Below, in pieces: positions 58,632-64,000 of a DNA stretch of 64,000 nt. Numbering within the stretch: position 1 is the first letter of the stretch; every line of letters starts with the position of its first letter. The stretch spans positions 6,572,001 to 6,636,000 of the forward strand of contig CAJFCV020000004.1 in the NCBI GenBank assembly GCA_904066235.2, read 5' to 3'. The notes beneath the pieces were generated by a model. The model made no database searches and was not told where the DNA came from. It saw nothing but the letters and a program-made list of their open reading frames with translations. Position numbers and translations under genes: made by a program. This stretch comes from Bursaphelenchus xylophilus (Eukaryota; Nematoda; Chromadorea; Rhabditida; Aphelenchoididae).

Positions 58632-61608
58632 TTATATTCTTTCATAAGGATGAAATCTTGATGTATTTGGGGCTTTTGGAGCTGGATTCCCCGGAAGCAT
58701 GGCCAGGTTTTGGTTCTGTCCCACAAATCTTGATTGATTCTCAATGTCCAATATACTCGCATAAGTGAATGTTTGTCGGGTACTGTAGATTACACCATCA
58801 TTTCTCACCAAATTCAGAGGGACTTCAAGACGGCCACCGTTCAGAAATGGCCATTGATTTTGGAAATCGGAGAGTTTTGGAATCTTGCATTCAAGGTACT
58901 CAAAGTTTCTAAATAGCAATATTATAGCAGATAATCAACCGAAAAAGGTAACATTTATAGTAGATGACAACATACTTGAATTTGGTCTCACAAGGGATAG
59001 ATCCCAACCAAACAGTGAGTTGTTGAGTGAACCATTGACCCCTCAAATAAACCGTAGTCTCTGTATTCATGGCATTCAACTTCTGATTCTGGTCTACAGT
59101 CATCGAGGAGACCAAAGGGACCGGGGAAATTGGAGAAGAGACTGGTCCCATGGCCTCATAGAATCTATACTCGACCTTGTCTGTGGAGATTATGGTCCAA
59201 GCAGCTCCATCACTGATCTGATGCCTCGAGGCATCCACGTAAACGGCCTGATGTTGAAGGATTTTGTCATGGGAGAGACAAAGATAGAGCAATTCATTCT
59301 CCAACAGTTGAAATGCACACTTATGCAGCTGACTAACGGGCTCTTCACACGTCGTTGCATCAAGAATAACATTTTGTTTGTCTACTTTTCTTATTCTCTA
59401 AAAGAAACGGAAATAAAAATGTGATTACTAAACCCACCAGCCAAGGCAAGGCCATTCCAGTCGTGCTGTCGACCAATTTAACCACTGCCCCATAGTAAAC
59501 AAACCCATCTTTTGGTTGGAACTCGGCGATTTCACTGGGATTCCTTTCTATATTTACTGTAATTAATTTCAGAATTCAACAAGCAGAACAAATTATACTA
59601 TTACAGTAGGAAAATCACACATGGATTTTATGGTCTAAACTTACTCAGATAGATGTAGAAAGCACCCCACTTGGTAGAACTTGCATGGAAATTCCCATTT
59701 TCTACATGTAGATATCTGGTGGAGACAGTTTGACTTCTGAGTCGATTAAACAATGCAATCCGAGTACCCGATCTGATGCATAAGTATTGACAATCGGTAC
59801 TTTTCATCGACTGTTTCTTCTTGGAGGGCTTTGAGATGACTTTGATGTGATCCGAGGAGAAAACTCCGATGTCCAGACCACTCAGGTAACTCAACTGGAT
59901 GCATAAATTAAAGTATTTCCTCTTCTCGGAGTCACTTATGTACAAAGTCTTCGCCGCGCAATAGTCCTGAAGGATAAATAAAGTGTCGAAAGAGGGGGGT
60001 TTACTTCTTTACCTTTCCATTGGAGAAGTCCAGATGTTGGGGCTCTTGTTCGATGGAGCCTTGGATTCCGATCTGAGCTCGGAGTTCAGAGCATTGGCTC
60101 TCCATGAACTTGTCTCGTTCTCTTGCACTCTCTTCGTTCTTCACCTTCTCTTTGAATTTTTTGTAAGCCTCTTCGAGCTTTAACTTCTTTAATTTCCATC
60201 CATCTCCAAGAAGATAAACACATGGAGGAGGACAAAAGAATCTAAAAAAATTAATTACAGTACTCCAATTTGCTCTTGGTATTTCTAAAGCGATATTTGG
60301 AATCGATGTCTGTACTCATACTGTAGCCGATAATTAAATTCTTGGTGTCTTTCTCTAGCATTTTCCCAGGCTTTTGAATATGCTTTCCTAATGCGGTAAG
60401 CTACAGTAATTCGGCTGGTTATGAGCTCAAGTCCAAACAAGCAGGTCCTCAAACACGGGGGTTAAACGATCGCGTAACCGGAGCATGTTCGGGCCGGATA
60501 ATCCATAAGGAACACTTACTCCACTTTACAGACCCCATATTTGTCGAGAAAAAGGTCCTCGAGTTCATCTTTCTTACTCAAGCAGCTGTTTAAGGAAGAG
60601 AAATGCAAATCCAAAAGACTTTCGCGGACTTAGCTAATGGTCCATAAGTGAGGTCGGGGATTTCCGAAAACTTTGTAATGCATAACTTCGGGGAAGAGCG
60701 TTCATAGAAATGTAAAAATTTCAAGAACTTGTGTTTGCAAAAATTAATCTAAAAAAAGATTGTACTTACCGCTTCTCATTACCGTAAGACTTCTGGGCCA
60801 CTTTGGCATGGAATATCTGAACAACACAATCGTATTTGAATGGATCTTGAAGATATTCGGTCATCTTTTCTTGCGTCAACGCTCCAGTTTTCTCCAGGAA
60901 TTTGATTCTGGGAACGGTGCTATTTTGACTATTGGTTGTATATGGATCATAGGAGGATGTCGGAGTCTGATTCAAATTATTTCCAAAAGTTGGATGGGTC
61001 ACATTTGGATATCGGGGATCTAAACCAAGATTTGATTTGACTTGATTTATATACGACAACTTCGTTCACAACACAACATTGATCTCCTCCATCATCTAAC
61101 CTGACTGTGGAAAAAACGCTGCTGCCGCTGCGGCCGCACAATTTGAATTGAACATTGTTTGGGCAGCGATCTGAGCAAACGGCGATGCAACATCAGAAGA
61201 TTGCCAGGTTGCGTAATTAAAGGGATGATTAATATCCATCGGATTACCAGAAAGAGATGAGGATTGATCTAGATAGTAGGGTGGTAATACTTGCGGTGAT
61301 GGGTAGTTGTAACCGAAGTCAGGCATGGAGGAAGAGGAGGCTAGAGCTGCACTGATGGGACCATACAGAAGATCTTGATGGATCTGCGGCTTGCTCTCGA
61401 AGAAGTCCTCCGGCACTGGGTTGACGGGTTCCGGTTGAGACGTGACTGGTTGATCGAATCCATGGCTCAGGAAGCTATGGTAGAATGGATTCTGACCCTC
61501 GGGCGGCTCAGTATAAGTAAAGGACGGAGGTATGGGACCAATGGAGGATCCCACCCCAGAAGAGACCGCATTCTCGGGACCGAGGTCGGCTTGACTGAAC
61601 CCGTCCAT
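58632..61608 (-). CDS. CSL (RBPJ/Su(H)/LAG-1) transcription factor, copy 1
   Basis: DNA-binding effector of Notch signalling. The first ATG in the open frame is at 61608; the frame is open back to about 61740 without ATG, so a leader exon may add residues. A long Pro/Ser-rich N-terminus (poly-Ala near its end) precedes the CSL core: [29 protein letters not shown] (RHR-N), [27 protein letters not shown], the DNA-contact loop [31 protein letters not shown], the beta-trefoil region ([33 protein letters not shown]) and RHR-C ([19 protein letters not shown]). An insertion of ~15 residues, rich in Lys/Glu, sits after GDGW. Introns match those of copy 2. Confidence 0.92.
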
Positions 61609-62238
61609 CGAGGGATGGGGGTTGGGGAGGGAGGGGAAACCGTGTGAATTATCTTGATCTCGGCGGGAACGGGAGCGTGGGGCGATTCCCACCACAGGAG
61701 AAGAAGGATGCCTTTTTTGAATCCCCGGATCTTCGTGGGGATCTTCTCACCGGTCTGGGATTGGGAAGATTCTCACCGAGAGCGATGCCAACAACACGAC
61801 GCTAGTTTGCGCGTAATTAGCTAATCAGGTGGAGGACAATAAGGTCAGAGAAAACGTCCACAAATGCAGAAATAAACCAGAGTCTGCCATGGAAGGCGGG
61901 GATTGCCGCGGATGTAGTACTACGGGATATCGGCCGAAGGGCCAATGGAAGGACGCCTTGCAGGAGGGGAATACGGTCGGCAAGAATTCCAGATACCAAG
62001 GCCTTTCGGAGATTCCCACGGCTCTAAAGTGGCTGGCCGGAGGGGATTGGCATTTCTAGGGTTTTCGGAAGAAGTAATTATAATGCAAGGAAAATATAAT
62101 TTATTACAATAAATAATTTTTAACAACCGTAAGAAACCCCAGAGCATAGACACTGGCATCTCTGCTGTACAACAATTGTGAGAACATGTGTTTGGATGTT
62201 CAACGAGGGAGATCAACAAGTACCATGGCTAAAACGCA
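61609..62238. other. Spacer between the two CSL copies
   Basis: About 630 bp that should contain the promoter of copy 1 and the 3' end of copy 2. It holds a perfect CSL-binding octamer at 62013-62020. Small open frames on both strands show no domain. Confidence 0.5.
62013..62020 (-). promoter_or_regulatory. CSL/LAG-1 binding site
   Basis: The minus strand reads CGTGGGAA, the high-affinity CSL consensus (C/T)GTGGGAA. It lies about 400 bp upstream of the copy 1 ATG and 220 bp beyond the copy 2 stop. A second core, GTGGGAA, occurs at about 61684-61691 in the copy 1 leader region. C. elegans lag-1 is known to be autoregulated, so this may be an autoregulatory site. Confidence 0.5.
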
Positions 62239-64000
62239 TTAATCCTCATACCGAAGACGTTTGTAGGCTGATTCGCGTTCGTCAATTACACCACTTTGAT
62301 ATTGGGTAGACCGGAGGAAAGAGTTCAAGGAGTGAGAGGAGGAAGGAGAAGATATCACACCCTCTCCACACACCTCTCCGACAACCGATTCGTTCATGAA
62401 GTAAGAGAAAGAACAGTCGTTGTAGTAGATTACGCCATCTTCTCTCACCAGGCACACCGGCAGTACTAGTTGACCATCCTCATAAAACAACTTGGCCAAG
62501 AAAGGAAGATCAGCAAAGACTTCTTCTTTTGAAGGGATCTCAACTTCCAGAGATTCATTACTTCTGAAAAAAAGTAGATAACAATATCATCGACGAAGAA
62601 GATGATGCAATATGCTCCCAACTTACACAAAATTTGTGTTTGCTTCAATCGTCCCAAACCACACTTTGACCTTGGGATGGAGGTCGCGGCCTCGCATAAC
62701 CATATAGGAATGGCCTCGAACCCCGCGGGCGTCGTCACCAGGCTTCTGCTGAATCTGCATGGTCTCAATCCTCGGGATCGGGGCCACTGGAAAACTAGAA
62801 CTTCCCATTGCTTCGTAGAATCTAAATTCATTCTTTTCGGCCGATATGATTGTCCAAGCCGCGCCCTCACTGACCAAATGTTGGCCTTGTTCATTAACAT
62901 CCGCCTGGAAAATGAAACGTCCGCTACTTATCAAAACTGGCTTACCGCATGCTGGAAGATATTATCACCATTCAAAGCTAAGTAGACATTTGAATTTGGG
63001 GCATCCAATATCTGGAACGCGACCCGATGAAGCTGACTGACAGGCTCATCAAAAGATTCTTGATCCAATATCACATTGTTCTTGTCACATTTTCTAATCC
63101 GCATTTTTGGCAAAGACAGATCAGAACAGCTATCGACCAACTTAATGGCATTACCGTAGTATACAAAACCAGTCCGGTGGTCAAAAGTAACGGCGTCGTC
63201 GGCGGTATCTTCATCAACTTAAAAGGACATGATTACGTAATGAGAATAAAGGCCACATTTCCCGCCCTTCCACACACTCATAAAACAAAAACGTTGATAA
63301 ATAATAAGACCACTTACTCAGGTGTATTTTGAATGCTCCCCATTTGGCTGGACTGGCATGGAAACTTCCATTCTCAACATGAAGATACCTGGTGGAGATT
63401 GTCTGAGATCGAAGTCGGTTGAAAAGAGCCACTTTCCCTCCACTGTTGATGCATAAGTAATTACAATCATTCCCTTTCACAGTCTGCTTCTTCTTGGAGG
63501 GCTTGGAGATCACTTTAATCCGGTCCGAAATGAAAGATCCAATATTGTGACTGCAGTTAAAACTGACATGCACTTGGAGGTGGAAGAACTTCCGCTTATC
63601 CTGATCGCTCACATAGAGACTTTTGGCAGGGCAGAATTCCTAAAACAAAAAAAATAAGACAATAAAACTATCAAAAAAGATTTTGTATATGATAATCCCT
63701 ACCTTTCCATTTGAGAAGTCCAGTGTCTGGGGTTCCGAGAACTTTGATCCCATTATTCCGATCTTTGCAACCAGTGATGTACATCTAGTATCATATCCAT
63801 TGTAACTCTCAACCACCCGTTCAAAGACTTTCCTTTTTCTTTCCCATCCAGCACCCGACAAGTAAACTGAGGGAGGGGGACAAAAGAATCTGAAAGCACG
63901 ACATTACTATATATTACAACTTGTATCATCTACCTCTTCTCATTCCCATACGACTTCTGAGCTACTTTAGCATGGAAAATTTTGACGACACAGTCCAGTT
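62239..64000 (-). CDS. CSL (RBPJ/Su(H)/LAG-1) transcription factor, copy 2 (N-terminus beyond window)
   Basis: Tandem paralogue of copy 1 in the same orientation. The window edge cuts it just before the RHR-N domain; visible from the edge are [88 protein letters not shown], beta-trefoil sequence ([32 protein letters not shown]) and a diverged RHR-C ([16 protein letters not shown]), then an acidic/Ser-rich tail ending RLRYED. DNA-contact residues match copy 1, while the beta-trefoil and C-terminal domain are more divergent. Intron positions equal those of copy 1, but introns are shorter. It may use different cofactors. Confidence 0.9.

What the first reader, a model, noticed from the sequence alone, without database searches (positions are those of the whole stretch)
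58632..64000. Tandem duplication of CSL/LAG-1, the Notch nuclear effector
Two CSL genes lie head to tail with the same intron positions. Both keep the DNA-contact loop LFNRLRSQT(V/I)STRYLHVE, but the beta-trefoil and RHR-C parts, which bind Notch and corepressors, diverge more. Most invertebrates have one CSL gene; vertebrates have RBPJ plus the divergent RBPJL. A nematode-specific second copy would imply split roles in Notch output, for example one copy activating and one binding DNA without the Notch intracellular domain.
Basis: partly seen in the sequence, partly recalled or inferred. Interest (0 to 1): 0.78.

Follow-up and report, generated by a model that had tools for sequence, protein, structure and literature searches.

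The report
Old tandem CSL gene pair, nematode
The pine wood nematode carries two side-by-side genes for the DNA-binding protein at the end of the Notch signalling pathway; both look intact, one is fast-evolving and altered where Notch should dock, so it may be a natural test of what this protein does without Notch.

Summary
Real, not an artefact. The window is Bursaphelenchus xylophilus, contig C4. Two intact CSL genes lie head to tail on the minus strand: copy A (58632-61608, 708 aa) and upstream copy B (62239-65685, running 1.7 kb out of the window, 568 aa). No third CSL locus was found. Synonymous sites are saturated, so these are old paralogues, not alleles. B copies of Bursaphelenchus and Aphelenchoides group together, so the duplication probably predates that split. 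A is the conservative LAG-1 orthologue. B's stem is 3.4-4.5 times longer in each domain. B keeps the tested DNA-contact residues but is changed at V263, A284, E398 and R422 on the Notch/cofactor side; A also has V263P, E398Y and R422K. The species' Notch receptor has TFIP where C. elegans GLP-1 has VWMP, and shows no LNR repeats. Five GTG(A/G)GAA sites lie between the genes (0.16 expected), suggesting auto- or cross-regulation. Best reading: B is an independently evolved, RBPJL-like CSL with reduced Notch response. Binding and expression are untested.

The parts
61101..61608 (-). Copy A (LAG-1 orthologue) coding exon 1, ATG at 61608; low-complexity N-terminal region
   Evidence: gene model; same start as database protein P0001
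60770..61019 (-). Copy A exon 2, start of NTD ([12 protein letters not shown])
   Evidence: Pfam LAG1-DNAbind 29.5 bits
60013..60241 (-). Copy A exon 3, NTD
   Evidence: Pfam LAG1-DNAbind 44 bits
59645..59966 (-). Copy A exon 4, DNA-contact loop [17 protein letters not shown]
   Evidence: Pfam LAG1-DNAbind 70 bits
59438..59556 (-). Copy A exon 5, BTD first part; followed by A's private phase-0 intron (L|RIRK)
   Evidence: P0001 joins exons 4 and 5 three residues shorter, B. okinawaensis P0002 agrees with this model
58976..59397 (-). Copy A exon 6, BTD and start of CTD
   Evidence: Pfam BTD 87.7 bits
58632..58908 (-). Copy A exon 7, CTD (TIG_SUH) to stop TAA
   Evidence: Pfam TIG_SUH 46 bits
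63934..64000 (-). Copy B exon 2 (part in window; full exon 63934-64189, exon 1 at 65619-65685 outside the window)
   Evidence: L004 position + 63000
63703..63889 (-). Copy B exon 3, NTD
63318..63639 (-). Copy B exon 4, DNA-contact loop [17 protein letters not shown]
   Evidence: Pfam LAG1-DNAbind 59 bits
62946..63217 (-). Copy B exon 5, BTD; followed by B's private phase-0 intron (HA|AD)
   Evidence: Pfam BTD 83.8 bits
62627..62904 (-). Copy B exon 6, end of BTD and start of CTD
   Evidence: TIG_SUH 21.6 bits, below the cut-off of 24
62239..62563 (-). Copy B exon 7, CTD (TIG_SUH) to stop TAA
   Evidence: Pfam TIG_SUH 29.8 bits (cut-off 24)
62100..62105 (-). AATAAA, candidate poly(A) signal of copy B, the only one found on this strand between 58000 and 66500
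62178..62184 (+). CSL-site match GTGAGAA between the genes
62013..62019 (-). CSL-site match GTGGGAA (CGTGGGAA with its flank)
61770..61776 (-). CSL-site match GTGAGAA
61744..61750 (-). CSL-site match GTGAGAA
61686..61692 (-). CSL-site match GTGGGAA

Best explanation
An old tandem duplication in the Aphelenchoididae gave a conservative LAG-1 (copy A) and a fast-evolving, intact second CSL (copy B). B most likely still binds GTGRGAA sites (inferred from its conserved DNA-side residues) but docks the Notch intracellular domain weakly or not at all. It would then act as a Notch-insensitive occupant of CSL sites, a repressor, competitor or partner of other factors, as RBPJL does in vertebrates, while A carries the Notch response. 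The CSL-site cluster in A's 5' flank and the sites in B's first intron and upstream suggest that the pair regulates itself. Shown: two intact old genes, conserved DNA side, changed cofactor side, site cluster. Inferred: DNA binding, loss of Notch docking, repression, mutual regulation.
For: Open seven-exon model for B, all introns GT-AG. The B. okinawaensis orthologue is 182/209 (NTD), 97/126 (BTD) and 80/115 (CTD) identical, so B is constrained but loose. Third positions differ at 60.8% of 441 codons and dS is not calculable. E89, K195, R218 and S221 are kept in B; the residue sets come from passages of PMC9398005, A284 from a passage of PMC9604145. B has H at 263 (V in 35 of 40 background rows), S at 284 (A in 37 of 40), V at 398 (E, D or T in 40 of 40) and V at 422 (R in 34 of 40). 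The predicted fold of the B core is a full-length CSL: pLDDT 87.8, best PDB match LAG-1 3brd, TM 0.87. Five GTGRGAA in the 630 bp between the genes against 0.16 expected from 52 in 200 kb, P 8.6e-7; 0 of 392 tiles of 630 bp have 3 or more; 0 of 5,000 simulated sequences with the gap's own dinucleotides exceed 3. Five more in 2,644 bp of B's intron 1 plus upstream, P 7e-4. RBPJL precedent: conserved R218, F261 and L388 equivalents, represses, does not bind NICD (PMC8508133, passages). C. elegans lag-1 also has several CSL sites in its large first intron (PMC7153901, passages).
Against: Copy A is changed at 3 of the same 5 NICD residues (V263P, E398Y, R422K), so the interface may have been rebuilt in the lineage rather than lost in B. 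S at 284 also occurs in 3 of 40 background rows and in two Aphelenchoides A copies. B keeps F261, K275, Q333 and E425 (K275 and Q333 as contacts are recalled), and the three Aphelenchoides B copies keep R422. RBPJL shows that F261 alone does not decide, so the residue argument is weak in both directions. B's rate excess is similar in the DNA domain. The stricter motif YRTGRGAA is not enriched over the window (23 found, 23.3 expected) and only 2 of the 5 gap sites meet it. No expression or binding data.
Confidence: 0.45

Rival explanations
1. Both copies are Notch-responsive, with an interface rebuilt together with a divergent receptor; A and B differ in which target, cofactor or strength they serve.
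For: V263 (8 of 8) and E398 (10 of 10) are changed in every Aphelenchoididae row that has the position. The Bursaphelenchus receptor has TFIP where GLP-1 has VWMP (PMC11582880, part 1 of 2 of the text), so receptor and pocket may have changed together. B keeps F261, K275, Q333 and E425.
Against: R422 goes to a hydrophobic residue (V, L) in both Bursaphelenchus B copies, while all five A copies have K; A284S in B.
Confidence: 0.25
2. Division of labour by expression: the two proteins do much the same work in different tissues or stages, and B is merely less constrained.
For: Different N-terminal regions; a poly(A) signal after B, a 630 bp gap, CSL sites around both. Roughly even rate excess in all domains.
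Against: B exceeds A in changes at near-invariant columns mainly in the BTD (8/43 against 1/43).
Confidence: 0.2
3. Separate tandem duplications in Bursaphelenchus and Aphelenchoides rather than one old one. (This concerns when, not what; it can hold with any of the others.)
For: Raw identity does not pair Aphelenchoides B with BxB (A. bicaudatus B: 73/126 BTD to BxA, 67/125 to BxB). With 55 rows a Bursaphelenchus-only duplication is not rejected (p-AU 0.071), and the A copies are not one clade in that tree (one A clade not rejected, p 0.356). Long-branch warning.
Against: B clade 95/96; B clade 96/93 and A clade 95/91 with partial and some long rows left out, where a Bursaphelenchus-only duplication is rejected (p-AU 0.0037). 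B-like unit before A-like unit in the two-unit models of A. fujianensis and A. besseyi.
Confidence: 0.2
4. Assembly or allelic duplicate, or a decaying pseudogene.
For: No record named B. xylophilus turned up for copy B among the 120 listed of 1,451 hits.
Against: Third-position differences 60.8%; dS saturated; open frame through seven exons; orthologue in B. okinawaensis (P0122); an identical 446-residue protein from another assembly (P0121).
Confidence: 0.02

Closest known systems
C. elegans LAG-1 (PDB 1ttu, 2fo1, 3brd)
   Same: Same three-domain CSL; copy A 596 bits and copy B 451 bits; several CSL sites in its own gene (PMC7153901, passages).
   Different: It keeps F261, V263, E398, R422 and E425, which both Bursaphelenchus copies only partly keep. 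That C. elegans has a single lag-1 is recalled.
Vertebrate RBPJL
   Same: A diverged CSL paralogue with conserved DNA-contact side; RBPJL represses and does not bind NICD (PMC8508133, passages).
   Different: Copy B nests inside nematode CSLs, so it is not an RBPJL orthologue; no RBPJL row was in my tree. Lack of NICD binding in B is inferred only.
Extra CSL copies of Caenorhabditis brenneri
   Same: Several fast-evolving CSL paralogues in a nematode (5 extra rows).
   Different: Separate origin inside Caenorhabditis; E89K, K195Q and S221T each occur in one of the five, unlike copy B.
Fungal CSL classes F1 and F2 (Cbf11/Cbf12, names recalled)
   Same: CSL paralogues in organisms outside animals (abstracts of PMC1973085 and PMC3155561 in the listing).
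   Different: Fungal; not compared here.

Membership tests
CSL (CBF1/Su(H)/LAG-1) | LAG1-DNAbind, BTD and TIG_SUH domains in order | tested here: met
   Both copies, exon by exon; PDB hits over the whole core
CSL (CBF1/Su(H)/LAG-1) | DNA-side residues K195, R218, S221 (and the disease site E89) | tested here: met
   Identical in A and B; residues from passages of PMC9398005
CSL (CBF1/Su(H)/LAG-1) | Three-domain fold | tested here: met
   Copy B core only, predicted through P0121 (446 aa, identical to copy B); LAG-1 3brd best, TM 0.87. Copy A not folded
CSL (CBF1/Su(H)/LAG-1) | Binding to GTG(G/A)GAA DNA | not testable with these tools
   Needs a gel shift or similar
Notch-responsive CSL (NICD-binding surface) | F261, V263, E398, R422, E425 | tested here: inconclusive
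   A: F,P,Y,K,E; B: F,H,V,V,E. Changed in both, effect unknown
RBPJL | Orthology to vertebrate RBPJL | tested here: not met
   Copy B lies inside the nematode clade (49 rows, 100/100) and with copy A's group (10 rows, 100/100); no RBPJL row was in the tree
RBPJL-like behaviour (works like) | Binds CSL sites, represses, ignores NICD | not testable with these tools
   Inferred from residues only

The most novel reading that the evidence does not exclude
The Bursaphelenchus Notch switch has been rebuilt: a receptor without LNR repeats and without the RAM tryptophan, feeding a lineage-altered LAG-1, beside a second, dedicated Notch-independent CSL that holds the same sites and controls the first. 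It would be an invertebrate counterpart of RBPJ/RBPJL that evolved on its own.
Probability: 0.3. Interest if true: 0.75.

Novelty: new variant of a known kind. Interest (0 to 1): 0.55.

Why it matters
C. elegans work shows that LAG-1 has Notch-independent roles (PMC8289040, passages), but they are hard to separate from Notch output when one gene does both. A family in which two CSL genes have diverged for a long time lets the Notch-dependent and Notch-independent jobs be assigned to separate proteins. It also shows a lineage in which both sides of the RAM-BTD contact have changed, although mutating the GLP-1 RAM motif removes receptor function in C. elegans (PMC11582880).

Tried and rejected
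Allelic or assembly copies: rejected by saturated synonymous sites. 'Same introns': tested and corrected. Operon of B and A: not favoured, because B has its own AATAAA and the gap is 630 bp with no clear trans-splice acceptor seen by eye; not tested with RNA. Recent gene conversion between A and B: third-position identity is 28-47% in all 11 blocks of 40 codons. High NTD similarity of the two units in A. besseyi (138/184) may be conversion there; not pursued.

Notch receptor: PF00066 found nothing at E 0.001 and one 17.6-bit match at E 0.6. Of its surroundings I read only L035 (3,090 bases), which shows repeats and no receptor by eye; the two 10-kb stretches fetched there were not examined. 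A Mastermind/LAG-3 profile found nothing, and the tool says this does not show absence. One of four weak NOD hits lies about 3.6 kb from one of 29 ankyrin hits on the same strand; that is the receptor. Its ankyrin exon has generic ankyrins and designed repeats as best PDB hits, the RAM stretch had no PDB hit, and P0153 shows NODP at 17.3 bits and no NOD, so the receptor call rests on the order EGF - NOD - NODP - membrane span (by eye) - ankyrin. In one search only P0153 and P0155 among the 120 listed were recognised as this receptor; most others look like unrelated ankyrin proteins. dN/dS between species was not possible: I had no B. okinawaensis DNA. One search labelled position 220 as R218; one search gives the right column.

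Literature: no paper in the held open-access library has both 'Bursaphelenchus' and 'lag-1'; the titles and abstracts listed by searches show none on a nematode CSL duplication. That library lacks most subscription journals.
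Full report
WHAT IS THERE. The window is G000:C4:6572001-6636000 of a 78.25 Mb, 8-contig genome. Its copy A protein matches a B. xylophilus record (P0001, 99%) on a contig of the same length, 12,794,883 bases. Two CSL genes lie head to tail on the minus strand. Copy A has seven coding exons from 61608 to 58632 (708 aa). Copy B has seven from 65685 to 62239 (568 aa); its 5' part lies beyond the window in L004. All 12 introns of these hand-made models are GT-AG. Five agree in place and phase; each gene has one private phase-0 intron in or at the end of the BTD. 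Pfam finds NTD, BTD and CTD in both, and the genome searches show no third locus.

AGE. Over 441 aligned codons the copies differ at 60.8% of third positions and dS is not calculable; only 104 of 229 same-residue codons are identical. This excludes alleles or an assembly copy. B. okinawaensis has both (P0002 91%, P0122 77%) on contigs of one length, 11,641,800, so presumably one contig. A. bicaudatus has two (P0005, P0054), likewise. The A. fujianensis and A. besseyi models hold a B-like unit followed by an A-like unit (P0003, P0004). Bursaphelenchus and Aphelenchoides are both in the family Aphelenchoididae, Aphelenchus in Aphelenchidae. With 55 rows the ten Aphelenchoididae rows are one clade (100/100) and the five B rows one clade (95/96), while the A rows are split: the Bursaphelenchus A pair stands apart from Aphelenchoides A plus B (80/71); Aphelenchus avenae falls outside. 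There neither a single A clade (p-AU 0.356) nor a Bursaphelenchus-only duplication (0.071) is rejected. With partial and some long rows left out (46 rows) A (95/91) and B (96/93) are separate clades and a Bursaphelenchus-only duplication is rejected (p 0.0037), with a warning that long branches meet. I give one old duplication about 0.75 to 0.8.

RATE AND SURFACE. B's stem is 4.3, 4.5 and 3.4 times A's in NTD, BTD and CTD, and 2.5, 3.4 and 4.0 times within the genus. At columns that are at least 95% one residue in 40 background CSLs, A has changed 5/107, 1/43, 0/14 and B 9/107, 8/43, 2/14 (NTD, BTD, CTD). E89, K195, R218 and S221 are unchanged in both. Of the residues of the published NICD-binding mutant (F261, V263, R422, E425, E398; PMC9398005, passages), A has F,P,K,E,Y and B has F,H,V,E,V. 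V263 (8 of 8) and E398 (10 of 10) are changed in every Aphelenchoididae row that has them, so part of the change came before or alongside the duplication. The predicted fold of the B core is a whole CSL.

THE REST OF THE PATHWAY. Two DSL ligand loci are present. A Notch-like receptor lies on C2 near 11.015-11.022 Mb: EGF repeats, weak NOD (15.4 bits) and NODP (20.7 bits) matches, both below Pfam's cut-off, a membrane span seen by eye, and ankyrin repeats. The B. okinawaensis orthologue P0153 has no LNR match at E 1. After the membrane span both have STFIPP where, by my alignment, C. elegans GLP-1 has VWMP, whose change to VAMA removes function (PMC11582880, part 1 of 2 of the text). So receptor and CSL pocket have both changed.

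REGULATION. The 630 bp between B's stop and A's ATG hold five GTG(A/G)GAA sites. The background is 52 in 200 kb (20 stretches), giving 0.16 expected (P 8.6e-7); 0 of 392 tiles of 630 bp reach three. B's intron 1 and 1.2 kb upstream hold five more in 2,644 bp (P 7e-4). The motif was chosen because it is the family's known site (abstract of PMC1973085, listing). Against this, the stricter YRTGRGAA is at chance over the window, and the broader RTGRGAA is only mildly raised (63 against 51.6; 4 of 100 shuffles). C. elegans lag-1 has several such sites and is thought to regulate itself in the soma, though not in the germline (PMC7153901, passages).

HOW IT PROBABLY WORKS. Most likely (0.45) B is a DNA-binding CSL with reduced Notch docking that shares sites with A, like RBPJL (PMC8508133, passages). 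The chief rival (0.25) is that both respond to a rebuilt Notch. Only binding and expression data can decide.

Noticed in passing
G000:C2:11012501-11022700 (L039, L038): Probable Notch receptor with no LNR repeat between the last EGF and NOD, and TFIP instead of VWMP after the membrane span; B. okinawaensis P0153 agrees. An LNR-less Notch would be worth a study of its own.
   Followed up: partly
Meloidogyne and Ditylenchus CSLs (P0082, P0129, P0052): Positions aligned with F261, V263 and K275 are also changed (N,Q,Q; N,Q,Q; P,L,T), so pocket change may be wider in Tylenchomorpha; the alignment is gappy there.
   Followed up: no
Caenorhabditis brenneri P0089, P0123, P0126, P0133, P0138: Five extra fast-evolving CSL copies, a separate expansion, some with changed DNA-side residues.
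   Followed up: partly
P0121: A 446-residue protein filed under the penguin Eudyptes robustus on a 1,868-base contig is identical to copy B: nematode DNA in a bird assembly; the record's own name says UNVERIFIED_CONTAM.
   Followed up: no
window 59556-59645: Database protein P0001 joins exons 4 and 5 of copy A three residues shorter than my model; B. okinawaensis P0002 supports the longer join.
   Followed up: yes
window 53800-56053, plus strand: Open frames with a TIGYGN pore motif, probably a two-pore potassium channel gene, near copy A (recognised by eye, no family search).
   Followed up: no
L004:3190-4870, plus strand (window coordinates 66190-67870, outside the window): A divergently transcribed PP1-like phosphatase (GDYVDRG, RGNHE motifs by eye) starts upstream of copy B.
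   Followed up: no
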